Source: Eubacteriaceae bacterium CHKCI004
GTDB lineage: Bacteria > Bacillota > Clostridia > Lachnospirales > Lachnospiraceae
DNA length: 49,349 nucleotides
Assembly: GCA_900016875.1 (NCBI GenBank)
Contig: FCNR01000031.1
Coordinates: 1-49,349 of the forward strand
Reading direction: 5' to 3'
The position numbers and the translations under genes are program-made. The notes beneath the pieces are model-generated. The model saw nothing but the letters and a program-made list of their open reading frames with translations, had not been told where the DNA came from and made no database searches. This document shows positions 9,657 through 30,278 of this stretch, piece after piece; position 1 is the first letter of the stretch; each line of letters starts with the position of its first letter.

Positions 9657-10520
9657 ATGAACGTTGCGATTGTAACAGACAGCAACAGTGGGATCTTTGA
9701 AGAAGAAGGAAAGATTCTAGGTGTCCATGTCATTCCAATGCCGGTGATTCTGGAAGGGAAAACATACTATGAAGGCATTGATTTAACTCATGAGGAGTTT
9801 TATCAATGCCTTGAGGAAAAAAGAGAAGTTTTTAGTTCTCAGCCTTCACCAGCAGAAGTTTTAGACATGTGGGATAAACTGCTCTTATCCGAATATGATG
9901 AGCTTGTATATATTCCAATGTCCAGCGGACTTAGTGGTTCCTGTCAAACAGCTCAGGTACTGGCACAGGATTATGAAGAAAAAGTACAGGTGGTTGATAA
10001 TCATCGCATTTCTGTCACCCAGAGGCAGTCCGTGTTGGATGCGCTGATGTTGAAAGAAAAAGGGTGTTCTGCAAAAGAAATAAAAGAAGCTTTAGAACAA
10101 ACTGCTTATGAATCCATTATCTATGTAGGCGTGGAAACCTTAGAATATTTGAAAATGGGTGGACGTGTCACTCCGGCGGGAGCTGCCATGGGCACATTAT
10201 TAAGTATAAAACCACTGCTTGTAATTGCCGGGGAACGTTTAGATGCCTATACAAAAGTTCGTGGAACAAAAAGCTGTAAAAAGCGTCTGCTTATGGAAAT
10301 GAAAACAATTGCAGATGAATTTCATAAAAATAGTGATGAGATATATGTGGGCGTCGCAGGGAGCTTCGGAAAAAAAGAAGAACATCAGGAATGGATGGAA
10401 ATGGCCCAAGAGATGTTTCCTTGGGAAGATGTTAAATACGATCCGCTGACATTCAGTATCAGCTGTCATGTGGGGCCAGGGGCTTTCGGTATGGGGATAA
10501 GTAGAAAAATAAGAATTTAG
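9657..10520 (+). CDS. DegV-family fatty-acid-binding protein (FakB type)
   Basis: 287 residues from ATG 9657, chosen because AGGAGG (9643-9648) sits 8 bases before it; an in-frame ATG at 9636 lies upstream of that site. Family signatures are AIVTDSNSG at the start, SSQPSPAEVLDMWD near 62, IPMSSGLSGSCQTA near 86 and the conserved GGRVTPAGAAMGTLLSIKPLL near 165. DegV/FakB proteins bind one fatty acid molecule in a buried tunnel and present it to the kinase FakA for acyl-phosphate formation. No FakA is encoded in the window. The protein is a natural carrier for substrate or product of the oleate hydratase upstream. Specificity for saturated versus unsaturated chains cannot be read here. Confidence 0.9.
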   Translation: MNVAIVTDSNSGIFEEEGKILGVHVIPMPVILEGKTYYEGIDLTHEEFYQCLEEKREVFSSQPSPAEVLDMWDKLLLSEYDELVYIPMSSGLSGSCQTAQVLAQDYEEKVQVVDNHRISVTQRQSVLDALMLKEKGCSAKEIKEALEQTAYESIIYVGVETLEYLKMGGRVTPAGAAMGTLLSIKPLLVIAGERLDAYTKVRGTKSCKKRLLMEMKTIADEFHKNSDEIYVGVAGSFGKKEEHQEWMEMAQEMFPWEDVKYDPLTFSISCHVGPGAFGMGISRKIRI

Positions 10521-10537
10521 AATAAGTGGGGAATCAA

Positions 10538-11898
10538 ATGAAGCGTTCATGGTTTAGAGCATTGCTCTTGAGACGAGTACAAGTATTATTCTTGTTGATT
10601 TTACAACTTTGTTTTTTACTCTTTATTTTTCAAAATGAAAGCTTTATTGCACAAGTATTACGAAGCGTTGTTCATATAATCAGTGGGTTTCTTGTCCTTT
10701 ATATCATTTCTAAAAAGGACAAAGGGGCCAATAAAGTAATCTGGATTTTTTTGATTTTATTGTTTCCGTTGTTTGGAAGTCTGTTGTATATCTTATATAA
10801 TTTTCAGGCATCTACAAGAAAATTTGAACAGAAAATATTTCAGATCGGACAAAAGAACAGAACCCTTTATGGATTACCTGGAAGTGCAGAAAAATCTGCA
10901 TATTATGAGGCTCCTGCTCATATACCACAGATCCGGTATCTAAAGTATGCTGGTTTTCCTGTTTATGATGATACCCAGACTGAGTACCTTTCGCCGGGAG
11001 AGAAATTTTTTCCTATTTTCCTGGAGGAATTGAAAAAGGCACAAAAATATATTTTTATAGAATACTTTATTATAAAAGAAGGATTGATGTGGCAGTCTAT
11101 TTTGGATATTTTGAAAGAAAAGGTTTCTCAAGGTGTTGAGGTGCGAGTTATTTATGATGATATTGGATGTTTTCTCGCACTACCGAAAGACTATGCGATG
11201 CAATTGAAAAATATTGGTATTAAATGTGAAGTGTTTAATCCATTTCGTCCTGTTCTTACGGCTATTCAAAATAATCGGGATCATAGGAAAGTTACTATAA
11301 TTGATGGGAAGGCTTTTTCCCCAAAAATGAAGTAGATGAAAGAATAGAATCAGATGGATTTGTACAACCCTATTCGGATAGTCCTGTGGATAATGAAAAC
11401 GTGGGAGAACATGTATATCTTCAGATTATAAATAATGCTAAGGATTATGTCTATATCTGTACGCCATATTTGATTGTCGATGACAGCATGGTATCTGCAT
11501 TGTGCTTAGCGGCTAAAAGCGGTGTAGATGTGCGGATTATCACTCCTCATATTTATGACAAGGCCTTGATTCATTTGACTACACGATCATTTTACAGGGA
11601 ATTGATATATGGTGGTGTGAAAATATATGAATATTCAAAAGGATTTATGCATTCTAAAATATTTGTTTCCGATGACCAGATAGCGACTGTAGGAACAACG
11701 AATTTAGATTTTAGAAGCCTCTATCTGCATTTCGAATGTGGAGTATGGATGTATAACAGTAAGGCAGTATTACAAATTAAAAAAGATTATTTTGATACAT
11801 TGAATGAGTGCACGCAGATTACATTAGAAGAGTGTATAGAAAGGTTGCCAATAAGGGTATTTCAGGAAATCTTGAGAATATTTGCCCCACTAATGTAA
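10538..11898 (+). pseudogene. cls: Cardiolipin synthase broken by internal deletion and frameshift
   Basis: The N-terminal half (from ATG 10538, stop at 11335) has two membrane segments, a PLDNc-like region (VIWIFLILLFPLFGSLLYIL) and the first HKD motif DHRKVTIIDGK. The C-terminal half continues in another frame from about 11,327 (DGFVQPYSDSPVDNENVGEH) and has the second HKD motif HSKIFVSDDQIATVGTTNLD and the end LRIFAPLM. About 60-80 residues expected after the first HKD motif, including the TGGINLADEY region, are missing at about 11,312-11,330. Cardiolipin synthase condenses phosphatidylglycerol in the membrane using both HKD motifs, so this copy should be inactive unless the halves pair. 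It is last in the probable operon from 6,362. Confidence 0.88.
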
Positions 11899-17971: not shown

Positions 17972-17994
17972 ATATTAAAATGAAGGAGATTTCG

Positions 17995-19041
17995 ATGAGA
18001 AGTTTTGATTATATAAAAACTCCGGAGCAATTGCTAAAACCTGAAATTGTTCAGATGGTCGGAAGCATTCATGAGCATAAAGGTAAGCAGGAATTGTTTC
18101 TTGAAGCCAATATAGACGAATTGAAAACTCTGCTGGAAGTTGCTTTGATTCAAAGTACAGGGGCTTCTAACAGGATTGAAGGTATTTATACTACCGACAA
18201 ACGTTTGGAAGAATTAGTAAGACAGAAAGCCGAACCGTGTAACCGGTCTGAACAGGAAATATCCGGATACCGGGAAGTTCTTGCCACTATCCATGAAAGT
18301 TATGAGTATATTAATCCGAGACCCAATATTATTTTACAATTGCATCGGGATTTATACTCATATTCCGGAGGAAATGCTGGTGGAAATTATAAAAATTCGG
18401 ATAATGTAATTGCAGAAACAGATGTAGAAGGTCATCAGAAAGCGCGTTTTATCCCGGTGCCGGCATTTCAGACTCCAGAAGCTATGAATGAACTTTGTAC
18501 AAATTTTCTGGAAGCATGGGAAGCAGATCGAATAGATAAGTTGATTCTTATCCCTATGTTTATTCTTGACTTTCTGTGTATCCATCCATTTAATGATGGA
18601 AATGGGCGAATGAGCCGCCTGTTAACACTTCTTTTGTTTTATAAAGCCGGCTATATTGTCGGAAAGTATGTCAGTGTTGAAATGCTGATTGAAAAGACAA
18701 AAGAAACTTATTATGAGGCATTACAGGAAAGTTCCAATGGATGGCACGAAAATGAAAACAGTTATGAGTCATTTGTAAAATATTATCTGGGAATTATACT
18801 GAAAGCATACAGTGAGTTTGAGGGGCGTGTAGAGCACCTGAAAAACAGAAGCCTTTCAAAGCCGGATCGTATAAAGGCAGTGATTGATAATAAGGTAGGA
18901 AAAATTACCAAAAAAGAAATCATGGAGTTATGTCCGGATATAAGCAAGGTAACTGTAGAAAGGACCCTGACGGAACTGGTTAAAAGTGGATATATCGCAA
19001 AAGTAGGTGCCGGGCCGGCAACAGGATATGTTCGTATTTAA
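17995..19041 (+). CDS. Fic-domain protein (AMP-transferase type) with C-terminal winged helix
   Basis: 348 residues from ATG 17995 (AAGGAG at 17983-17988; an in-frame ATG at 17980 lies before that site). The Fic core motif HPFNDGNGRMSR is complete near residue 197, so NMP transfer to target hydroxyls is expected. The inhibitory motif S-N-R-I-E-G near residue 58 ([S/T]xxxE[G/N]) precedes the core, which makes this a class II, self-inhibited Fic. The last 60 residues (KITKKEIMELCPDISKVTVERTLTEL split over a helix-turn-helix) form a DNA-binding-like domain that often accompanies this architecture. No separate antitoxin is encoded. It lies between the integrase and the attachment site, the usual place for end cargo on such elements. 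The target is unknown. Confidence 0.92.
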   Translation: MRSFDYIKTPEQLLKPEIVQMVGSIHEHKGKQELFLEANIDELKTLLEVALIQSTGASNRIEGIYTTDKRLEELVRQKAEPCNRSEQEISGYREVLATIHESYEYINPRPNIILQLHRDLYSYSGGNAGGNYKNSDNVIAETDVEGHQKARFIPVPAFQTPEAMNELCTNFLEAWEADRIDKLILIPMFILDFLCIHPFNDGNGRMSRLLTLLLFYKAGYIVGKYVSVEMLIEKTKETYYEALQESSNGWHENENSYESFVKYYLGIILKAYSEFEGRVEHLKNRSLSKPDRIKAVIDNKVGKITKKEIMELCPDISKVTVERTLTELVKSGYIAKVGAGPATGYVRI

Positions 19042-19359: not shown

Positions 19360-19401
19360 CTCCTAAGCGAGGGGTCGGAGGTTCAAATCCTCTCGGGGAC
19401 G
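19360..19401 (+). other. Attachment site: 3' part of tRNA-Arg(CCT)
   Basis: CTCCTAA (19360-19366) is an anticodon loop with CCT. It is followed by GCGAG, a variable region, a T arm (GGAGG TTCAAAT CCTCT) and CGGGGACG, the 3' side of an acceptor stem. The 5' half (D arm, 5' anticodon stem) is missing: the sequence just upstream (CACAGAGCT) does not pair with GCGAG. This is the pattern left when an element integrates at the anticodon loop of a tRNA gene and duplicates the 3' end. The tRNA-type terminator follows directly, so the original chromosomal side is to the right and the intact tRNA should be at the far left end of the element, outside the window. Confidence 0.8.
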
Positions 19402-19406
19402 GGCGT

Positions 19407-19456
19407 AAAAAGCGGGAATGATTATCAGAGATAACTGAATCATTTTCCGCTTTTTT
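19407..19456 (+). terminator. Terminator of the original tRNA-Arg gene
   Basis: AAAAAGCGGGAATGATT (19407-19423) pairs with AATCATTTTCCGCTTTTTT (19438-19456), a long stem ending in six T. It lies 5 bases after the tRNA 3' end. Confidence 0.88.
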
Positions 19457-21753: not shown

Positions 21754-21807
21754 GTGGTCAATTATTATGGTGGAAAATGTTTATAAAATGTGATGGAGGC
21801 AGCGAAA

Positions 21808-23406
21808 ATGGCGGAAATGGAAAATAGCAAAGATTTGATAAGCGTATTATGGAGCGGGGCGGATATTCTCCGTTCAAAAATGGATGCCAATGAGTATAAA
21901 GATTATTTATTAGGAATTGTTTTTTATAAATATTTATCTGATTCATTTTTGATTAAAGTATATGACTTGCTCTTTGATAAAAAGCCGGAAAATCTGAAAG
22001 TTGCTTTGGATGCATATAAGGAAGCTTTGGAAGATGAGAGTGCTGAAGAATTAAAAGATCAGCTTAAATCAGAATGTCACTATATCATTGAGCCGGAATT
22101 AACGTATACATATTTTGCAGAAACAGCAAGAAATAATGCATTTAACAGAGAACAATTGCAGAAAGCTTTTAATAATATCGAACAGAGTGATCCGCTATTT
22201 GCAGATTTATTTACAGACATTGATTTGTATTCAAACCGACTGGGAACAGGCGACCAAAAACAAAGCGATACTGTTTCAAGTCTGATAAAAGAAATTGATA
22301 AAGCAGATCTCCTTAATACAGATGCGGATATTCTTGGAAATGCTTATGAATATTTGATTGGACAGTTTGCCTCTGAAACAGGAAAGAAGGCCGGAGAATT
22401 CTATACGCCACAGCCAGTATCTAAAATCCTTACAAGGATCGCCATCGCTGGTCAGGAAGATAAGAGAGGATTACTGGTATATGATCCGTGTATGGGGTCC
22501 GGTTCTCTTTTGCTGAATGCAAAAAAATATGCAAAGGAGCCACAATATATCCGATATTTTGGTCAGGAACTGATGACATCAACTTATAATCTGGCGAGAA
22601 TGAACATGTTTCTTCATGGAATAGCTCCTGAAAACCAAAAACTTCGAAATGGCGATACGCTGGATGAAGACTGGCCAACCGGAGAAGAGACAGATTTTGA
22701 TATGGTACTTATGAACCCACCGTATTCTGCTAAATGGAGCGCAGCGGCAGGATTCTTGCAGGATGAAAGGTTTAGTGATTACGGAGTGCTGGCTCCTAAG
22801 TCAAAAGCAGATTACGCATTTTTACTTCATGGGCTGTATCATTTAAAAAGTAGCGGAACCATGGCAATCGTATTGCCCCATGGAGTATTATTTCGGGGTG
22901 CCTCTGAGGGAAAAATAAGAGAAAAGTTACTCCGTTCAGGCAATATCTATGCAGTCATAGGTCTGCCGGCAAACTTATTTTATAATACATCAATTCCTAC
23001 CTGTATCCTCGTATTAAAAAAGCACAGAGAAGGAAGAGACGTGTTGTTTATTGATGCATCAAAAAAGTTTGAAAAAGGCAAAAAGCAGAACAGTATGACA
23101 GATGAACATATTGACACAATCATCAATCTGTACATGAACAGAGAAAACGTAGAAAAAGAATCCTTCCTCGCCAGCTTTGAAGACATCGAAAAAAATGATT
23201 TTAACTTAAATATACCTCGATATGTCGATATATTTGAAAAAGAAGAAGAGGTGGATTTAAACGCTCTGCTGACAGATATGAAAAAAACAGATGAAGAATT
23301 GGAAAAAACACAGCAGGAATTTTTGTCACTACTCAAAGACTTAACCTCACCAGATGAAAAAATTATGGCGTCGTTACAGGATTTGATTGAAAAGATGGAG
23401 GAGTGA
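21808..23406 (+). CDS. hsdM: Type I restriction-modification DNA methyltransferase subunit
   Basis: 532 residues from ATG 21808 (GGAGG at 21795-21799; earlier in-frame GTG/ATG at 21790/21793 overlap that site). The N-terminal HsdM_N domain includes KDYLLGIVFYKYLSD. The methylase core has motif I DPCMGSGSLL near residue 230 and the adenine-specific NPPYSAKW near 307. GKKAGEFYTPQPV near 195 is the usual HsdM loop. The helical C-terminus contacts HsdS. With two HsdM and one HsdS it makes the N6-adenine methyltransferase of a type I system. The stop overlaps the region of the hsdS start, so the genes are coupled. Confidence 0.95.
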   Translation: MAEMENSKDLISVLWSGADILRSKMDANEYKDYLLGIVFYKYLSDSFLIKVYDLLFDKKPENLKVALDAYKEALEDESAEELKDQLKSECHYIIEPELTYTYFAETARNNAFNREQLQKAFNNIEQSDPLFADLFTDIDLYSNRLGTGDQKQSDTVSSLIKEIDKADLLNTDADILGNAYEYLIGQFASETGKKAGEFYTPQPVSKILTRIAIAGQEDKRGLLVYDPCMGSGSLLLNAKKYAKEPQYIRYFGQELMTSTYNLARMNMFLHGIAPENQKLRNGDTLDEDWPTGEETDFDMVLMNPPYSAKWSAAAGFLQDERFSDYGVLAPKSKADYAFLLHGLYHLKSSGTMAIVLPHGVLFRGASEGKIREKLLRSGNIYAVIGLPANLFYNTSIPTCILVLKKHREGRDVLFIDASKKFEKGKKQNSMTDEHIDTIINLYMNRENVEKESFLASFEDIEKNDFNLNIPRYVDIFEKEEEVDLNALLTDMKKTDEELEKTQQEFLSLLKDLTSPDEKIMASLQDLIEKMEE

Positions 23407-23411
23407 CTGAT

Positions 23412-24647
23412 ATGGGAAAGCCAAAGATAAGATTTAAAGGATATGAGAAGGAGTGGGAACAGCGTAAGCTGGGGGAGTTGGTGAAATTTTCGAAAGGAAC
23501 TGGTTATTCTAAAGGAGATTTAAAGGAATCTGGAACCCCTATTATTCTTTATGGAAGACTTTACACAAAATATGAAATAGTAATAAAAGATGTAGATACA
23601 TTTGTTGATGCAAAAATTGGTTCTGTTTATAGTTGTGGCGGTGAAGTGATAGTTCCGGCTTCTGGAGAGACAGCAGAAGATATTTCAGTAGCCTCAGTAG
23701 TTGAAAAATCAGGAATTTTACTTGGTGGTGATCTCAATATTATAACGCCTTCGTCTGAACTTGATTCAACATTTTTGGCTCTTAGTATATCTAACGGAAA
23801 ACCACACAATGATATGGCTAAAATGGCGCAAGGAAAATCCATCGTACATCTCCACAATTCTGATTTGGAAAAAATAGAATTAGCTTATCCAAGTTATGAA
23901 GAACAAGTTCAGATAAGTACTTATTTTGGATACCTTGACCACCTCATCACTCTTCATCAGCGTAAATGTGAAGAAATAAAAATATTGAAAAAATACATGC
24001 TTCAGAAGATGTTTCCTCGAAAAGGAAAAAATAAACCAGAGATAAGATTTCAAGGATTTACTGATGCTTGGGAACAGCGTAAGTTGGGAGAAATTGCTCA
24101 ATCATTTGAGTACGGGTTAAACGCTGCAGCGAAAGAATATGACGGAACAAATAAGTATCTGAGAATAACAGATATTGATGATGCATCAAGAAAGTTTAAC
24201 ACAGATAATCTGACTTCACCAGATATCGAGTTTTCAACAGCCGAGAATTTTCGATTGTTTGATGGAGACATTCTCTTTGCTCGAACAGGTGCAAGTGTCG
24301 GAAAATCCTTTATTTATAGGGATTCAGATGGCATTGTATACTTTGCAGGCTTCCTTATTAGAGCAAGAATTAAGATGGAATATGATGCAGAGTTTGTTTT
24401 TCAAAATACACTATGTGAATCATATGGAAAGTATATTCAAATTACATCTCAGCGTTCTGGCCAGCCCGGAGTCAATGCAAAAGAGTATTCGGATTATGTT
24501 TTTTATTTACCAACATATGATGAACAAAAAAAAATTGGGAACTTTTTGCATCAAATCGACAACCTCATCACTCTTCACCAGCGTAAGTGCGATGAACTGA
24601 AAAAAGTGAAAAAATTTATGCTTCAAAAAATGTTTCCGCAAGATTAG
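23412..24647 (+). CDS. hsdS: Type I restriction-modification specificity subunit with two target-recognition domains
   Basis: 411 residues from ATG 23412 (GGAGGAG at 23397-23403). Two target-recognition domains alternate with two conserved helical regions. Domain 1 begins after EWEQRKLGEL and ends at LITLHQRKCEEIKILKKYML; domain 2 begins after AWEQRKLGEI and ends at LITLHQRKCDELKKVKKFML. Each domain reads one half of a bipartite DNA target. QRK is encoded by CAGCGTAAG (once CAGCGTAAA) at all four boundaries, at 23,460, 23,958, 24,075 and 24,579. A third, silent domain with the same boundaries lies at 25,664-26,194, and a tyrosine recombinase follows hsdR, which suggests that domains can be exchanged. 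The target sequence cannot be predicted. Confidence 0.95.
   Translation: MGKPKIRFKGYEKEWEQRKLGELVKFSKGTGYSKGDLKESGTPIILYGRLYTKYEIVIKDVDTFVDAKIGSVYSCGGEVIVPASGETAEDISVASVVEKSGILLGGDLNIITPSSELDSTFLALSISNGKPHNDMAKMAQGKSIVHLHNSDLEKIELAYPSYEEQVQISTYFGYLDHLITLHQRKCEEIKILKKYMLQKMFPRKGKNKPEIRFQGFTDAWEQRKLGEIAQSFEYGLNAAAKEYDGTNKYLRITDIDDASRKFNTDNLTSPDIEFSTAENFRLFDGDILFARTGASVGKSFIYRDSDGIVYFAGFLIRARIKMEYDAEFVFQNTLCESYGKYIQITSQRSGQPGVNAKEYSDYVFYLPTYDEQKKIGNFLHQIDNLITLHQRKCDELKKVKKFMLQKMFPQD
23460..23468 (+). repeat. Site A, CAGCGTAAG at the left edge of recognition domain 1
   Basis: Context TGGGAACAGCGTAAGCTG, shared with sites C and E. Confidence 0.7.
23958..23966 (+). repeat. Site B, CAGCGTAAA at the right edge of recognition domain 1
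   Basis: Context CTCATCACTCTTCATCAGCG followed by TAAA; shares the CTCATCACTCTTCA(C/T) lead-in with sites D and F. One base differs from the common nonamer. Confidence 0.65.
24075..24083 (+). repeat. Site C, CAGCGTAAG at the left edge of recognition domain 2
   Basis: Context TTGGGAACAGCGTAAGTTG, matching sites A and E. Confidence 0.7.
24579..24587 (+). repeat. Site D, CAGCGTAAG at the right edge of recognition domain 2
   Basis: Preceded by CTCATCACTCTTCAC, as at site F. Sequences of D and F agree up to CAGCGTAAGT and then diverge. Confidence 0.7.
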
Positions 24648-24700
24648 AAAGGTAAAAATCGTAAAATCATATCTGAGAAAAATATGAAAGGGGAAGGTTA

Positions 24701-25180
24701 ATGATTTTATATCATGGCAGCAATATGGAAGTAAGAAGTCCTAAAATTATAAAGGCAAAAAGATTATTGGATTTTGGAACAGGATTCTATCTTACCAGCG
24801 ATTATGAGCAGGCAAAGAAATGGGCAATCCGAACTACTGCCAGGCGGGAAGAAGGAGTTCCTACAATTACAATATATAATATCGATGAAAATAAATTTGA
24901 TGAATTAAATGTATTGAACTTTAATAGAGCAGACAAAGAATGGCTTCGGTATGTTTCTGTAAATAGAACGGATAAGTCAGCGAGAGATAACTATGATATT
25001 GTCATTGGTCCGGTGGCAAATGACCAGGCGATTCGTACTGTCAATAATTATCTGAAAGGATATTTTACGGAAGATATTGCAATTCAATTATTGTTGCCAC
25101 AAAAGTTAAAAGACCAGTATGTTTTGAAAACAGAAAAAGCACTTTCCTTTTTGAAATTTGATGAGGTGAAGAAAGTATGA
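24701..25180 (+). CDS. DUF3990 protein, probable ADP-ribosyltransferase-fold toxin
   Basis: 159 residues. MILYHGSNMEVRSPKI at the N-terminus, the segment LDFGTGFYLTSDYEQAKKWA near 25-44 and Asn/Asp-rich DNYDIVIGPVAND near 98-110 are the hallmarks of DUF3990 as I recall it. The family has been placed with ADP-ribosyltransferase-like folds (the H-G-S start and the G-F/Y-Y-L-T motif). An enzymatic toxin is therefore plausible but not shown. A ribosome binding site GGGGAAGG is just upstream of ATG 24701. The gene overlaps the next by 4 bases and the third follows directly, so all three form one unit. The unit sits between hsdS and the silent specificity domain, on DNA that recombination between hsdS sites could excise. 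Confidence 0.75.
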   Translation: MILYHGSNMEVRSPKIIKAKRLLDFGTGFYLTSDYEQAKKWAIRTTARREEGVPTITIYNIDENKFDELNVLNFNRADKEWLRYVSVNRTDKSARDNYDIVIGPVANDQAIRTVNNYLKGYFTEDIAIQLLLPQKLKDQYVLKTEKALSFLKFDEVKKV

Positions 25181-25422
25181 AGAGATTAGAGCCTGAAATT
25201 ATTGACTATTATGATAATGAAGTAGTAATGATGATATCAGAAAAATATGGGGTAAGTCAGATGGAGGCATTAAAAATGTTTGTATGCTCTAAAACCCATG
25301 AGATGCTTGAAAATGAAGAATGTGGCATGACAGAATTTGGGGCGGAAGCAATTTTTGAGATATGGGAATGCGAAAAAATCACAGGAGATCCGAGAAATTC
25401 TGTGTATATAAGGGAGGAATAA
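25177..25422 (+). CDS. Small acidic protein, possible antitoxin partner of DUF3990
   Basis: 81 residues, acidic (PEIIDYYDNEVVMMISEKYG; ENEECGMTEFGAEAIFEIWE). No membrane segment or known catalytic motif. An N-terminal helical segment resembles small antitoxin-like proteins found with DUF3990 genes in Firmicutes. ATG 25177 overlaps the toxin-like gene stop by 4 bases with GAGG just upstream, so it is translationally coupled. I cannot give a firm family name; a DUF3791-like relation is possible but weak. Role as immunity or antitoxin is inferred from order and size. Confidence 0.6.
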   Translation: MKRLEPEIIDYYDNEVVMMISEKYGVSQMEALKMFVCSKTHEMLENEECGMTEFGAEAIFEIWECEKITGDPRNSVYIREE

Positions 25423-25423
25423 T

Positions 25424-25633
25424 ATGTCAGAAGAAATGAAATTTTTTATGTATTTGTTGGAGTATTATTCTGCTTATAAAAATAAAAAAACTGGAGATGT
25501 GTTTAAAACCTGGGAGAAGTGTGGAATTCTAAAAAAAATATATGATAATTATTGGATTTACCATACGGAACGTATAGAAAATGCTTATATGGATATTGAC
25601 AGTTTAATCAAGACAGGGAAAAGTGCTTGGTAA
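25424..25633 (+). CDS. DUF3791 protein
   Basis: 69 residues. EEMKFFMYLLEYYSAYKNKKT, DVFKTWEKCGILKKIYDNYW and HTERIENAYMDIDSLIK match the pattern of DUF3791 proteins as I recall them, small Firmicute proteins usually next to DUF3990 genes. AGGGAGGAA precedes ATG 25424 by a few bases and overlaps the end of the previous gene. The stop codon (25,631-25,633) is in the same frame as the silent hsdS domain that follows. Function unknown; a partner in a toxin-antitoxin or immunity module is the simplest view. Confidence 0.72.
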   Translation: MSEEMKFFMYLLEYYSAYKNKKTGDVFKTWEKCGILKKIYDNYWIYHTERIENAYMDIDSLIKTGKSAW

Positions 25634-25663
25634 TTAGGAGAAGGAAAAACTATAACTTGGGAA

Positions 25664-25672
25664 CAGCGTAAG
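25664..25672 (+). repeat. Site E, CAGCGTAAG at the left edge of the silent domain
   Basis: Context CTTGGGAACAGCGTAAGCTC, as at sites A and C, here without a gene start in front. Confidence 0.7.
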
Positions 25673-26185
25673 CTCCTTGATTGCATAGATAAGATTACTG
25701 ATTTTAGAGGTCGTACACCAAAAAAACTTGGTATGGATTGGAGTGAAAATGGTTATTTGGCTCTTTCAGCATTGAATGTAAAGGATGGTTATATTGACTT
25801 CACACAAGATGTTCATTATGGAAATCAAAAATTATATGATAAATGGATGTCGGGAAATGAATTGCATAAAGGACAAGTACTATTTACAACAGAAGCTCCA
25901 ATGGGAAATGTGGCTCAAGTGCCTGATAATAAGCGATATATATTAAGCCAAAGAACCATTGCTTTTAGTGTAACCTCAAATTTGATTACCGAAAATTTTC
26001 TTGCTATTATCTTACGTTCTCCTAATGTTGTTTCAACTTTGACAGCCTTATCGAGTGGGGGAACTGCAAAAGGAGTAAGTCAAAAATCATTATCAACAGT
26101 AGAGATAACAATTCCAGCTGATTTAGAAGAACAAGAGCGACTCGCAAGTACATTTTTAAAGTTAGACAATCTCATCACTCTTCAC

Positions 26186-26194
26186 CAGCGTAAG
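26186..26194 (+). repeat. Site F, CAGCGTAAG at the right edge of the silent domain
   Basis: Preceded by CTCATCACTCTTCAC and followed by TATTTT, which resembles the sequence next to site H (read on the minus strand). Confidence 0.7.
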
Positions 26195-26266
26195 TATTTT
26201 CATACCCAAAACATTCTCAATTACATAAGAACTGGCTTAGTAACAATAGGAAAGGAGACTAAAGAG

Positions 26267-29254
26267 ATGCCTGAATTGGAATCGATGATTGAAAATAAAT
26301 TAATCGAGCAGTTAGCCTATGGGGATTCCCAGTGGACATATCGGCCAGATTTGAAAACGGAAGAAGATTTATGGAAGAATTTCAGATATATATTGGAGCA
26401 GAATAATAAAGACCGATTGAACGGGCAGTCTCTTTCTGACCAGGAATTTGAGCAGGTAAAAAATCAATTACAGTTTTCATCCTTTTATAAGGCAGGAGAA
26501 TGGCTGGTGGGAGAAAATGGAAAGGTACAGGTTCATGTGCAGCGGGATATGGAGAGGCTGCATCTTGTGGTGATGAATCATGAGCATATTGCGGGAGGAA
26601 GCAGTGTGTATGAAGTGATTAATCAGTACAGTGCATTGAAAACCGAAGAAGACGGTAAAGATGCCGGGCGCAACAGGAGATTTGATGTTACGCTGCTGAT
26701 TAACGGATTGCCGATGATACATATTGAATTGAAAAACAGACAGCATTCTTATATGGAGGCATTCCGTCAGATTAAGAAATATATTGGAGAGGGAAAGTTT
26801 ACGGGAATTTTTTCTGCAGTGCAAATGTTTGTGGTCAGTAATGGAGTTGACACGAAGTATTTTTCTGCTGCCAGTGATACAGAGCTGAATTCAAATTTTG
26901 TCAGTGGATGGTTGGATGAGGAAAATAATCCGGTGTCAGATTATATTGACTTTGCAAAAAAGGTACTTCGCATACCACAGGCTCATGAGATGATAGCCAG
27001 ATATACGGTATTGGACAAGGAAGCAAAAAAATTAATCTTACTTCGTCCGTATCAGATTCATGCCATTGAAGCGATTCGAGCGGCTTCAAAGGTTGGTCAG
27101 TCTGGTTTTGTGTGGCATACGACTGGCTCGGGTAAGACTTTAACATCTTATAAAGCAACCAGAAATCTGTTAATGGATATTCCTTCGATAGACAAGGCTA
27201 TTTTTCTGATTGACCGGAAGGATTTGGACACCCAGACGACCATGGCCTTTCAGGCATATGCTAATAACGATTTAATTGATGTCAATGATACAGAGAATGT
27301 CAACGACTTAAAGAAAAAACTGAAAGCGGACGACCGACAGGTTATTGTCACAACTATTCAAAAATTACAGAGATTGGTCACGAAAAGGCTGAAGGAAGGA
27401 ACTTCGGAATACAGTAGGATTAGAGGATTAAAGATTGCTTTTGTGGTAGATGAATGTCACAGGGCGGTATCGCCGGGGACAAAGAGAGAATTAGAAAGAT
27501 TTTTTGGAAATTCATTGTGGTATGGCTTTACCGGAACGCCAAGATTCTCAGAGAATCCTTATCCTCAGATGGGTGATTTGCCGCGTACAACAGAAGAATT
27601 ATATGGAAAATGTCTGCATAAATACACGATACAGAATGCAATCCATGATAAAGCAGTGCTGGGATTTCAGGTAGAACACAATGGCCCGAAAAATATATCT
27701 GATGAGGCTGATTGCAGTGAATACGAAAATGAAACTCATATGCTGCAGGTTCTGGATATCATTTTGAATAAATCATATCATAAATTAGGATTTCAAAATG
27801 GAAAAGGCAAGACATATGAGGCATTACTTACCACAAGTTCCATTCCGATGGCTCAGAAATATTATGATTTACTCTCTAAAGTAAAAAAAGGAGAGAAATC
27901 TTTAAAGATTGATGAGAAGATAAAACAGGTACTTCCGGATTTTCCAAAGTTTGCTATTACATATTCCATAACAGAAAATGCAGAAGGCTCTCAGGTCAAT
28001 CAACAGAAAATGCAGAGAGCATTGGATGATTACAATAAAATGTTTGGGACGAAATATGAACTAAGTCAGATACAAGGATATAATGGAAATCTGAACAAGA
28101 GACTTGCCAGAAAAGATGCAAAATATAAGAGAAGAAATGAGCAGCTTGATTTGGTGATTGTGGTAGACCGTCTGCTCACAGGTTTCGATGCTCCATGTAT
28201 GTCCACCTTGTATATAGACAGGCAGCCTATGGGACCCCATGATTTGATTCAGGCATTTTCAAGAACTAATCGAATCTTTGATGATAATAAAATGTTCGGC
28301 CAAATTGTTACTTTTCAGGCTCCGCAGATGTTTAAGAAATGTGTTGATGACGCCATTAAATTGTATTCTGCCGGAGGAACCAATGAATCTATTCTGGCGG
28401 AATGGGATGAGATTGAAAAGGCGTTTAAAAAAGCGCTTGCGGCCCTTCGCATTTCTGCAAAGACACCTTCTGAAGTACCGGGAATGTCTTTGAAGGAAAA
28501 AAAGGTATTTGTAAAAGTATTTCAGAATTTTGACCGCTCGTTTGCGCAGCTTCAATCATTTTCACAGTATGATAATAGTATGCTGGAAAAATATGGAATT
28601 ACACAGGAAGAATATGAGGATTATGCCGGACATTATCAGAATGTAATGGAAGAAATTAAAGCAGATCGGGAGAATCAGGAAAGTGGTGAAGAGGAAGAGA
28701 TAGAAGAGATTGAGCTTGATCCGGATTATGAATTAATGGCATACAGCAATACAAAGATTGATTATGAATATATTATCAACTTGATTCAGAATATTGTGAC
28801 TCCGGACGAGGATGCATCTGACATTACACCGGGAGAAAGGCAAAAACAGATTGATGAAGTGAAGCAGTACGTGGGAGAGCTCAGAAAAGAGAACCCCAAG
28901 ATTGCTGATATTATGTCTAATCTGATATCAGAAATAGAACAGGACGAGAATAAATATAAAGGACAGTCCATTTTAAATATTGTCGAAAAAATGAAAAATA
29001 CATACATAGACAAAGTTATTTCTGATTTTTGTGTGAAATGGTATGCATCAAAGGATGATGTAATGTATGCGGCAACACATTATAGAAATGAAGAAATACC
29101 TAATGAAAGTGTAATCAAATCCACCATTGATTATGCAAGTTATAAAAAAACGCAGGAAAAGGCATTGCCGAAATTTAAGTATTATACGCAATGTTTAACA
29201 GAATTGAAAAAAATATTGGAGGAAGAGATAAAACCACTAATCAGTCATTCATGA
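26267..29254 (+). CDS. hsdR: Type I restriction endonuclease/translocase subunit
   Basis: 995 residues from ATG 26267 (AAAGGAG 26251-26257). The N-terminal nuclease of the PD-(D/E)xK type is visible (RRFDVTLLINGLPMIHIELKNR around residues 140-155 with D and E-x-K). The superfamily 2 helicase motor has Walker A TTGSGKT near 287, DECH in FVVDECHRAVSPG near 394, YGFTGTPRF, and the late motifs LLTGFDAP and IQAFSRTNR. The C-terminal helical part (about 850-995) is long and charged. HsdR joins the methylase, pumps DNA and cuts unmethylated targets away from the site. It has no stop codon upstream in its frame until 25,633, so its frame is joined to the silent specificity domain. Confidence 0.95.
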   Translation: MPELESMIENKLIEQLAYGDSQWTYRPDLKTEEDLWKNFRYILEQNNKDRLNGQSLSDQEFEQVKNQLQFSSFYKAGEWLVGENGKVQVHVQRDMERLHLVVMNHEHIAGGSSVYEVINQYSALKTEEDGKDAGRNRRFDVTLLINGLPMIHIELKNRQHSYMEAFRQIKKYIGEGKFTGIFSAVQMFVVSNGVDTKYFSAASDTELNSNFVSGWLDEENNPVSDYIDFAKKVLRIPQAHEMIARYTVLDKEAKKLILLRPYQIHAIEAIRAASKVGQSGFVWHTTGSGKTLTSYKATRNLLMDIPSIDKAIFLIDRKDLDTQTTMAFQAYANNDLIDVNDTENVNDLKKKLKADDRQVIVTTIQKLQRLVTKRLKEGTSEYSRIRGLKIAFVVDECHRAVSPGTKRELERFFGNSLWYGFTGTPRFSENPYPQMGDLPRTTEELYGKCLHKYTIQNAIHDKAVLGFQVEHNGPKNISDEADCSEYENETHMLQVLDIILNKSYHKLGFQNGKGKTYEALLTTSSIPMAQKYYDLLSKVKKGEKSLKIDEKIKQVLPDFPKFAITYSITENAEGSQVNQQKMQRALDDYNKMFGTKYELSQIQGYNGNLNKRLARKDAKYKRRNEQLDLVIVVDRLLTGFDAPCMSTLYIDRQPMGPHDLIQAFSRTNRIFDDNKMFGQIVTFQAPQMFKKCVDDAIKLYSAGGTNESILAEWDEIEKAFKKALAALRISAKTPSEVPGMSLKEKKVFVKVFQNFDRSFAQLQSFSQYDNSMLEKYGITQEEYEDYAGHYQNVMEEIKADRENQESGEEEEIEEIELDPDYELMAYSNTKIDYEYIINLIQNIVTPDEDASDITPGERQKQIDEVKQYVGELRKENPKIADIMSNLISEIEQDENKYKGQSILNIVEKMKNTYIDKVISDFCVKWYASKDDVMYAATHYRNEEIPNESVIKSTIDYASYKKTQEKALPKFKYYTQCLTELKKILEEEIKPLISHS

Positions 29255-29288
29255 TATCATTATAACAAGTGCTGAAATTCTGAATAAT

Positions 29289-29303
29289 CATATCAGCGTA
29301 AGT
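29289..29303 (+). repeat. Site G, left inverted copy beside the recombinase gene
   Basis: CATATCAGCGTAAGT, non-coding, 24 bases upstream of the recombinase start. It is the inverted partner of site H with one mismatch in 15 and shares CAGCGTAAG with the hsdS sites. Confidence 0.75.
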
Positions 29304-29327
29304 GATTTTTGAAAAGAAAGGCGTATT

Positions 29328-30254
29328 ATGGTGAAGAACAAGAATGAGGCACTTCTTTTTTGTGAGTATTATAAGCAGTGGGTAGACATATATAAAAAAG
29401 GAGCGATCCGGGAAGCAACTATGGCAAAATATAGGATGACTCAGAAATGGGTAGAGCGACTGGTTCCGGATCTGAAAATGTCAGAGTTGACGAGGATGAA
29501 GTACCAGCAGCTTTTGAATAATTACGCAGAAGAACATGAAAAACAAACTACGCTGGATTTTCATCATCAGCTCAAAGGGGCTATTCTAGATGCGGTAGAT
29601 GAAGGATTGATAGAAAGAGACCCGACTCGAAAGGCAATTATTAAAGGAAAGCCACCTGGAGTAAAAAAGATAAAATATCTGAATCAATTTGAATTGCGTA
29701 AGCTGATTGATGATTTAAATTTAAAAGGGGAGCCAAATTGGGATTGGTTTATTCTTCTGGTTGCAAAAACCGGTATGAGATTTTCTGAAGCTCTGGCAAT
29801 TACTCCCGGGGATTTTGATTTTGCAAGGCAGACTCTCTCTATAAATAAAACATGGGATTATAAAGGAGACGGGGGCTTTTTACCTACAAAAAACAAATCA
29901 TCGGTAAGAAAAATTCAGATTGACTGGCAGGTTGTAGTAAAATTTGCTGAGCTGACAAAAGAAATACCAGAGGGTAAACCTATTTTTGTAGGTGGATCAA
30001 AAATATATAACTCTACTGTTAATGGCGTACTTACAAGACATTGTAAAAAAAGCGGTATATCAGAGATTTCCATGCATGGGCTTAGACATACCCATGCATC
30101 TTTGTTATTATTTGCAGGTGTATCCATTGCGAGCGTGGCACGCAGGTTGGGACATGCCAGTATGACGACGACACAAAAAATATATCTGCATATTATTCAG
30201 GAACTGGAGAACAGAGATGTAGATTTGGTTATGAGAACTTTATCAGGGTTATAA
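29328..30254 (+). CDS. Tyrosine recombinase associated with the type I locus
   Basis: 308 residues. The N-terminal core-binding part begins CEYYKQWVDIYKKGAIREAT. Catalytic residues are complete: Arg in KTGMRFSEAL (near 150), HGLRHTHASLL (near 249-252), LGHASMTTT (His near 275) and Tyr in QKIYLHI (near 285). The size and the lack of an arm-binding domain resemble the recombinases that shuffle hsdS genes (the class that includes CreX/PsrA of the pneumococcal SpnIII locus) rather than element integrases. The gene lies directly downstream of hsdR, between inverted motif copies G (29,289) and H (30,264) that share their core with all cassette boundaries. AAAGG precedes ATG 29328. Switching of HsdS specificity is a strong inference. 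Confidence 0.88.
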   Translation: MVKNKNEALLFCEYYKQWVDIYKKGAIREATMAKYRMTQKWVERLVPDLKMSELTRMKYQQLLNNYAEEHEKQTTLDFHHQLKGAILDAVDEGLIERDPTRKAIIKGKPPGVKKIKYLNQFELRKLIDDLNLKGEPNWDWFILLVAKTGMRFSEALAITPGDFDFARQTLSINKTWDYKGDGGFLPTKNKSSVRKIQIDWQVVVKFAELTKEIPEGKPIFVGGSKIYNSTVNGVLTRHCKKSGISEISMHGLRHTHASLLLFAGVSIASVARRLGHASMTTTQKIYLHIIQELENRDVDLVMRTLSGL

Positions 30255-30263
30255 ATAAAAAAT

Positions 30264-30278
30264 ACTTGCGCTGATATG
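30264..30278 (-). repeat. Site H, right inverted copy beside the recombinase gene
   Basis: ACTTGCGCTGATATG; read on the minus strand CATATCAGCGCAAGT. It lies 10 bases after the recombinase stop. Similarity to site G extends into AATAAT on the outer side. Confidence 0.75.

What the first reader, a model, noticed from the sequence alone, without database searches (positions are those of the whole stretch)
23412..30278. Type I restriction locus wired for specificity switching through a shared CAGCGTAAG motif
All six edges of three recognition domains (two in hsdS, one silent) carry CAGCGTAAG or a one-base variant. Two further copies, in non-coding DNA, stand as an inverted pair around a tyrosine recombinase gene (29,289 and 30,264, 14 of 15 matching). 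Agreement inside hsdS could come from the conserved protein motif QRK, but the copies flanking the recombinase cannot. Boundary sequences of cassettes 2 and 3 diverge exactly after the motif. Recombinase-linked shuffling of hsdS is known (for example pneumococcal SpnIII). Direct cassettes and a recombinase bracketed by its own inverted sites seem a less described layout, which could allow excision, re-entry and recombinase inversion.
Basis: partly seen in the sequence, partly recalled or inferred. Interest (0 to 1): 0.85.

Follow-up and report, generated by a model that had tools for sequence, protein, structure and literature searches.

The report
Self-bracketed recombinase and recognition-module cassettes
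A gut bacterium's DNA-restriction locus looks built to swap its DNA-recognition modules at one short repeated site, and the enzyme gene that probably does the swapping is itself enclosed by an inverted pair of the same site, a layout kept in dozens of related species.

Summary
All six edges of three HsdS recognition domains carry CAGCGTAAG (one ends AAA). An inverted pair of the site (14 of 15 bases) brackets the tyrosine recombinase gene and occurs nowhere else in the 3.99 Mb assembly. The bracket is conserved: 44 of 45 close relatives with enough flank have both copies, inverted; with no motif assumed, 83 of 96 loci show it against 2 of 96 in direct orientation. Inside hsdS the site is held as DNA, not only as peptide QRK: 86 of 115 and 72 of 73 edges use exactly CAGCGTAAG, where codon use predicts about 4%. 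Cassettes 81-95% identical sit silent in one species and in hsdS position in another, with ends at the site. I read it as a recombinase-driven cassette Type I restriction locus. Direct cassettes resemble pneumococcal SpnIV/tvr (published excision-reintegration) and a flippable recombinase is known from SpnIII, so neither is new. The dedicated non-coding inverted bracket, its partial co-variation across lineages and a DUF3990 toxin-like module in the array make a new variant. Self-inversion is inferred: 49 of 49 close relatives show one orientation, 12 of 44 brackets have unequal cores, and no reads could be examined.

The parts
21790..23406 (+). hsdM, Type I modification subunit
   Evidence: TIGR00497 hsdM 364.5 bits, cut-off 242.75
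23403..24647 (+). hsdS, specificity subunit with two recognition domains (TRD1, TRD2)
   Evidence: Pfam Methylase_S, two stretches; PADLOC Specificity_I
23460..23468 (+). site A, start of TRD1, start type (TGGGAA before the core)
23958..23966 (+). site B, end of TRD1, end type, CAGCGTAAA
24075..24083 (+). site C, start of TRD2, start type
24579..24587 (+). site D, end of TRD2, end type
24701..25180 (+). DUF3990 gene, toxin-like, between sites D and E
   Evidence: PF13151 E 1.7e-51; PDC-M13A E 4.8e-70; model pLDDT 92.0 nearest to RES and ParT toxins, modest scores
25177..25422 (+). small gene, PDC-M13B
   Evidence: E 1.3e-35; no Pfam match
25424..25633 (+). small gene, DUF3791, PDC-M13C
   Evidence: PF12668 E 2.5e-10; PDC-M13C E 1.7e-34
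25664..25672 (+). site E, start of the silent TRD3, start type
25643..26230 (+). silent recognition domain TRD3, no start codon of its own that fits an hsdS gene
   Evidence: translation, TRD profile hit
26186..26194 (+). site F, end of TRD3, end type
26267..29254 (+). hsdR, restriction subunit
   Evidence: TIGR00348 and Pfam HSDR_N, EcoR124_C in the open frame 25733-29254; start ATG 26267 read
29289..29303 (+). site G, non-coding, left copy of the inverted bracket
29328..30254 (+). tyrosine recombinase gene
   Evidence: Pfam Phage_integrase E 2.1e-21
30264..30278 (-). site H, non-coding, right copy of the inverted bracket
   Evidence: homology with relatives ends just beyond it

Best explanation
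This is a recombinase-linked, specificity-switching Type I restriction-modification locus organised as cassettes. The tyrosine recombinase acts at a site with the common core CAGCGTAAG. In hsdS the core doubles as the codons for Gln-Arg-Lys at both edges of every recognition domain, so recombination between cores keeps the reading frame. Recognition domains, and the DUF3990 module, lie between directly repeated sites and move by excision and re-entry or by exchange, working like pneumococcal SpnIV/tvr. Shown by comparison of species: the site is held as DNA; cassettes have changed place between silent and hsdS positions with ends at the sites; the bracket G/H is conserved and always inverted. 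Inferred: this recombinase is the enzyme that uses the sites, and the inverted pair lets it flip its own gene. With the start codon only about 33 bp behind G, transcription probably enters from hsdR or from a promoter outside G, so a flip would uncouple the gene and limit its activity. Not shown: any rearrangement in a living population of this species.
For: Codon lock at TRD edges (86/115 and 72/73 against 3/32 and 2/17 elsewhere, expected 4.2% and 4.4%). Bracket conserved (both copies in 44/45 clade A, 19/34 clade B; 83/96 inverted, 2/96 direct). G/H co-vary beyond shuffles, also after clustering. Homology-block ends at sites: 40/84 right, 22/71 left against 3.5% and 4.8%. Same cassette silent in one species and in hsdS in another. 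Between two E. raffinosus strains with a 62%-identical recombinase, N-terminal TRDs changed places with a breakpoint at a start-type site. Promoter-like sequence outside G in L074/L076 (read). Precedents: SpnIV/tvr and SpnIII/creX.
Against: No reads and no strain-level variant of this species were seen; the window's array matches only itself in its assembly. 49/49 clade-A loci have one recombinase orientation. G and H cores differ in 12/44 clade-A and 19/31 clade-B loci. H is below threshold in 1/45 clade-A loci; 15/34 clade-B loci lack one or both at threshold. Species-level cassette movement could also come from homologous exchange. No enzyme activity was tested.
Confidence: 0.72

Rival explanations
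1. Docking model, integron-like: G and H are vacant landing sites beside the recombinase where excised recognition-domain cassettes are parked; relatives with a TRD next to the recombinase show occupied sites.
For: In clade B and L201, L077 a TRD lies directly beside the recombinase, upstream in the same direction or downstream inverted. G and H resemble end-type sites in the base before the core (62/64 and 49/51 T or C).
Against: All 18 parked TRDs with a readable start site (of 21) keep the start-type left arm TGG(G/A)AA, which a simple crossover in the core at a G- or H-type site would have replaced.
Confidence: 0.1
2. G and H are only binding sites by which the recombinase regulates its own gene; no flipping takes place, and the cassettes are exchanged by other enzymes or by homologous recombination.
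For: One orientation in 49/49 clade-A loci; G and H cores unequal in 12/44; co-variation could follow the binding taste of each recombinase; in tvr and SpnIII part of the shuffling continues without the recombinase.
Against: Strictly inverted orientation (no copy the other way round in 45 + 34 loci) is not asked for by mere binding; in clade B 6/31 loci have the recombinase opposite to hsdR, four of them tail to tail with it.
Confidence: 0.15
3. The motif agreement is only protein conservation of QRK plus chance copies in non-coding DNA.
For: All six internal copies encode QRK.
Against: Codon test, uniqueness of the 15-mer in the assembly, bracket in the family.
Confidence: 0.01

Closest known systems
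SpnIV / tvr locus of Streptococcus pneumoniae, recombinase TvrR (PMC6265443; abstract, sections 14 and 21 part 1, and passages seen)
   Same: Type I genes, spare TRD segments, locus recombinase, two kinds of direct repeat at TRD edges that share a short core (about 11 bp there, 9 bp here), toxin-antitoxin-like genes in the array
   Different: There the toxin-antitoxin genes are phd-doc homologs and the recombinase lies among the cassettes before hsdR, with all repeats in one orientation; here DUF3990/DUF3791, the recombinase behind hsdR, and one inverted site
SpnIII / cod / ivr locus, recombinase CreX = PsrA (PMC6620402, PMC4948785, PMC7096588; passages seen)
   Same: Recombinase gene lies inside DNA bounded by short inverted sites (15 bp) and changes orientation; CreX core ATTATGGGAA resembles the TTGGGAA left arm of the start-type sites here
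   Different: There the inverted sites lie in opposing hsdS genes; here they are non-coding, tight around the recombinase gene, and no opposing hsdS is present in the window
PDC-M13 of PADLOC (candidate anti-phage system)
   Same: The three genes at 24701-25633 match PDC-M13A, B, C
   Different: A candidate without a function test that I saw; the models say nothing of recombination sites

Membership tests
SpnIV/tvr-type locus | hsdM, hsdS, hsdR with at least one spare TRD segment and a locus-borne tyrosine recombinase | tested here: met
SpnIV/tvr-type locus | Two types of direct repeat at TRD edges sharing a core | tested here: met
   Start type and end type share CAGCGTAAG
SpnIV/tvr-type locus | All repeats of the locus in one orientation | tested here: not met
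   H is inverted
SpnIV/tvr-type locus | phd-doc type toxin-antitoxin pair next to the recombinase among the cassettes | tested here: not met
   DUF3990/DUF3791 instead; recombinase lies behind hsdR
SpnIV/tvr-type locus | Circular intermediates and shuffled arrays in cultures | not testable with these tools
   No reads or PCR
SpnIII-type inverting locus | Opposing hsdS copies with inverted repeats | tested here: not met
   All TRDs of the window point the same way
SpnIII-type inverting locus | Recombinase gene inside a segment bounded by short inverted sites | tested here: met
   G and H, 14 of 15 bases
SpnIII-type inverting locus | Inversion observed | not testable with these tools
   No reads; 49/49 clade-A loci in one orientation
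Integron | Cassettes inserted at a site beside the integrase gene by a crossover in that site | tested here: not met
   18 of 18 parked TRDs with a readable start site keep their own left arm
PDC-M13 candidate defence system | Adjacent genes matching models A, B and C | tested here: met
   E 4.8e-70, 1.3e-35, 1.7e-34

The most novel reading that the evidence does not exclude
A self-limiting specificity shuffler: the recombinase gene is transcribed only while it faces the same way as hsdR, and flipping itself between G and H is its off-switch, so switching comes in short bursts. The one inverted site H also lets direct cassettes be reordered by paired inversions without losing DNA circles, while the DUF3990 toxin cassette penalises cells that lose the array.
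Probability: 0.3. Interest if true: 0.75.

Novelty: new variant of a known kind. Interest (0 to 1): 0.6.

Why it matters
It would extend pneumococcal-style epigenetic switching to many gut Lachnospiraceae and relatives (20 of 392 genomes of the order carry a close recombinase) and gives an exact short site for each locus, so that existing reads can be searched for rearranged junctions and methylome changes. It also makes a question testable: how does a recombinase gene in its own invertible segment stay in one orientation, and what does the toxin-like cassette do in the array?

Tried and rejected
Docking of cassettes at G/H by a simple core crossover: 18 of 18 parked TRDs with a readable start site (3 more had none) keep the start-type left arm.

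Alternative junctions in the window's own assembly: the array matched only itself. Strain-level flips in plasmid relatives: of 71 plasmid records with a match I fetched 10; 7 Ligilactobacillus salivarius plasmids show the same annotated order and the same flanks of the recombinase, with no copy of the site visible there, so they do not inform; Listeria innocua and E. raffinosus have the opposing-hsdS layout. Viral contigs: 36 relatives; of 34 annotated, 22 show no hsd hit; no use for orientation.

Promoter scan: 42 sites against 31.7 (sd 5.9) in shuffles, not informative; the promoter-like sequence before G in L074/L076 is my own reading.

Weak points and slips. In one search HsdR was translated in a wrong frame, so its HsdR identities are void; corrected. 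The shuffle test ignored relatedness; one search repeats it on clusters. In one search the cross-locus control is high (34.5 of 96) because loci share the motif; the direct-orientation control (2 of 96) is the cleaner one. The 96 loci include near-identical pairs (L099/L100, L074/L076). L046 and L053 had too little flank. One search uses only blocks of 80% or more and 200 bp or more, in the 29 loci with a complete hsdM-hsdR span, and counts both members of each pair, so its ends are not independent. Two of the 28 block ends just beyond H are where contig L053 ends.
Full report
WHAT WAS CHECKED. The motif is present at every stated place and above chance (18 matches at one mismatch or better against mean 4.53, 0 of 100 shuffles). 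The inverted 15-base pair around the recombinase occurs nowhere else in the 3.99 Mb assembly. The locus runs hsdM 21790-23406, hsdS 23403-24647, DUF3990 24701-25180, two small genes to 25633, a silent TRD, hsdR 26267-29254, site G, recombinase 29328-30254, site H.

THE LOCUS IS AN ISLAND. A congener, G009, has the neighbouring SulP and sodium-symporter genes side by side without the locus. By my reading the insertion spans about 21736 to about 30308 or a little less, so H lies within a few tens of bases of its right end. Among relatives, 37 homology-block ends fall near H; 28 stop 3-24 bp beyond it (two of them because a contig ends) and 9 run on, from pairs that share the flank.

THE BRACKET IS CONSERVED. 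One scan of 84,980 species genomes found 225 stretches encoding a relative and kept the best 80. I call loci at 79.5% identity or more clade A (47 with the window) and the other scanned loci clade B. Of 45 clade-A loci with enough flank, 45 have G and 44 have H at 9 of 11 or better; of 34 clade-B loci 27 and 21, both in 19; none in the other orientation. With no motif assumed, an inverted shared word scoring 10 or more joins the 70-bp flanks in 83 of 96 loci, against 2 of 96 in direct orientation and 34.5 expected from pairing different loci; by identity class it is 47 of 48, 36 of 43 and 0 of 5 for loci below 65%. The site differs among lineages and the two copies often differ together: CAGTATAAG in both copies of L075, CAGCGTGAG in both of L085, L095, L098, L101, L111, L112, CAACGTAAG in both of L106 and L118, ATCGGCG forms in L206 and L207, ATGAATTGGCA in L205. 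But the cores are identical in only 32 of 44 clade-A and 12 of 31 clade-B loci, the window itself differing by one base. Shuffles still show matching beyond chance in the core and the next two bases, also after thinning clade A to 32-33 clusters (core: no shuffle reached it in 20 draws of 500; next base 25.2 against 14.1; second base 24.1 against 19.4, largest p 0.026; further inner bases and the outer six bases no effect).

THE SITE IS HELD AS DNA. At TRD edges QRK is written CAGCGTAAG in 86 of 115 cases in clade A and 72 of 73 in clade B. QRK elsewhere in frames of 150 aa or more gives 3 of 32 and 2 of 17; codon use of hsdM, hsdR and recombinase predicts 4.2% and 4.4%. Silent TRDs keep TGG(G/A)AA before the core in 58 of 69 (1 other, 10 without a readable site). 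G and H resemble the end type: the base before the core is T or C in 62 of 64 and 49 of 51.

CASSETTES HAVE MOVED. Of 155 ends of interspecies homology blocks inside the hsdM-hsdR span of 29 loci, 40 of 84 right ends and 22 of 71 left ends lie at a site, against 3.5% and 4.8% for random positions. Clear cases: the silent TRD of L043 matches the second hsdS TRD of L045 (94.6%, 521 bp); the silent TRD of L041 matches the first TRD behind hsdM of L092 (91.3%, 515 bp); the window's TRD2 matches a silent TRD of L092 (81.8%, 522 bp); the segment with DUF3990 shared by L059 and L072 (95%, 1,274 bp) ends on the last core base. In these TRD cases the shared stretch starts 7-8 bp before the first core and stops at or near the end of the second. 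Between two E. raffinosus strains whose recombinase is 62% identical to ours, the N-terminal TRDs of opposing hsdS genes have changed places, one breakpoint lying in a 22-bp repeat that holds a start-type site. Species comparison cannot by itself separate site-specific from homologous exchange.

THE TOXIN-LIKE MODULE. 16 of 29 complete hsdM-hsdR spans, the window included, hold DUF3990, in several subfamilies. The window's trio matches PADLOC PDC-M13A, B and C. PDC candidates are described as found by guilt-by-embedding in a passage of PMC12988326 that cites a preprint I did not see and does not name M13. The model (pLDDT 92.0, pTM 0.85) is nearest to RES and ParT toxins of toxin-antitoxin pairs with modest scores (E 4.1e-4 to 1.1e-2, TM about 0.5). 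In tvr the phd-doc homologs were first suspected of addiction and found to restrain the recombinase. A like role here is inference.

ORIENTATION. The recombinase points the same way as hsdR in 49 of 49 clade-A loci with a nearby hsdR (45 behind it, 4 before it); it is opposite in 6 of 31 loci at 65-79.5% and 4 of 5 below 65% (which adds loci). Four of the six (L091, L104, L205, L209) have it tail to tail with hsdR, as a flip between G and H would leave it; the shared words of L104 and L209 are weak (scores 10 and 9). This fits slow or selected-against flipping and does not prove flipping.

LITERATURE. Seen: abstract, sections 14 and 21 (part 1 of 2) and passages of PMC6265443; passages of PMC7096588, PMC4948785, PMC6620402, PMC7394358, PMC5903667, PMC11892184 and PMC12988326. 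PMC11892184 reports inverton groups tied to hsdS and tyrosine recombinases in gut Firmicutes; whether they include this site I could not see. Nine searches of the open library listed no paper that I could recognise as describing a recombinase bracketed by its own non-coding inverted sites in a Type I locus; most listings were not opened, and subscription papers and supplements were out of reach, so I do not claim absence from print.

VERDICT. A real, conserved, well-delimited variant of recombinase-driven Type I specificity switching. The cassette part works like tvr; the bracket, if it flips, works like the creX inversion of SpnIII. It fails at least one defining feature of each, so I file it as a new variant, not as a member of either.

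Noticed in passing
window 25634-29254: The silent TRD3 is in one stop-free frame with hsdR. The same holds in 12 of 25 clade-A loci with a TRD just before hsdR (2.3 expected from base shuffles; the loci are related) and 1 of 7 in clade B (0.4 expected). Moving the last cassette into hsdS could give an HsdS-HsdR fusion or coupled translation.
   Followed up: partly
L042, L053, L068 just before hsdR: Degenerate site copies and TRD-end remnants lie between the last TRD and hsdR, like scars of earlier cassettes.
   Followed up: no
L045 4400-6378; L067 4504-6179: The DUF3990/DUF3791 module is 88% alike over 994 bp, but two pieces that lie before it in L045 lie behind it in L067 (80%, 278 and 277 bp).
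   Followed up: partly
L205 around 9882-10805: A 69%-identical recombinase is bracketed by a different inverted word, ATGAATTGGCA, so the site seems to have changed outright in this lineage.
   Followed up: no
L217-L245: The recombinase family grades at 50-58% identity into integrases on viral contigs, most of them without an hsd hit nearby.
   Followed up: partly
window about 19360-19455: A short stretch matches several places in congeners and one other contig of the same assembly at 82-100%; ARAGORN finds no tRNA there. Unexplained.
   Followed up: partly
window 17980-19041: A Fic-domain gene lies upstream of the island, before the SulP gene.
   Followed up: no
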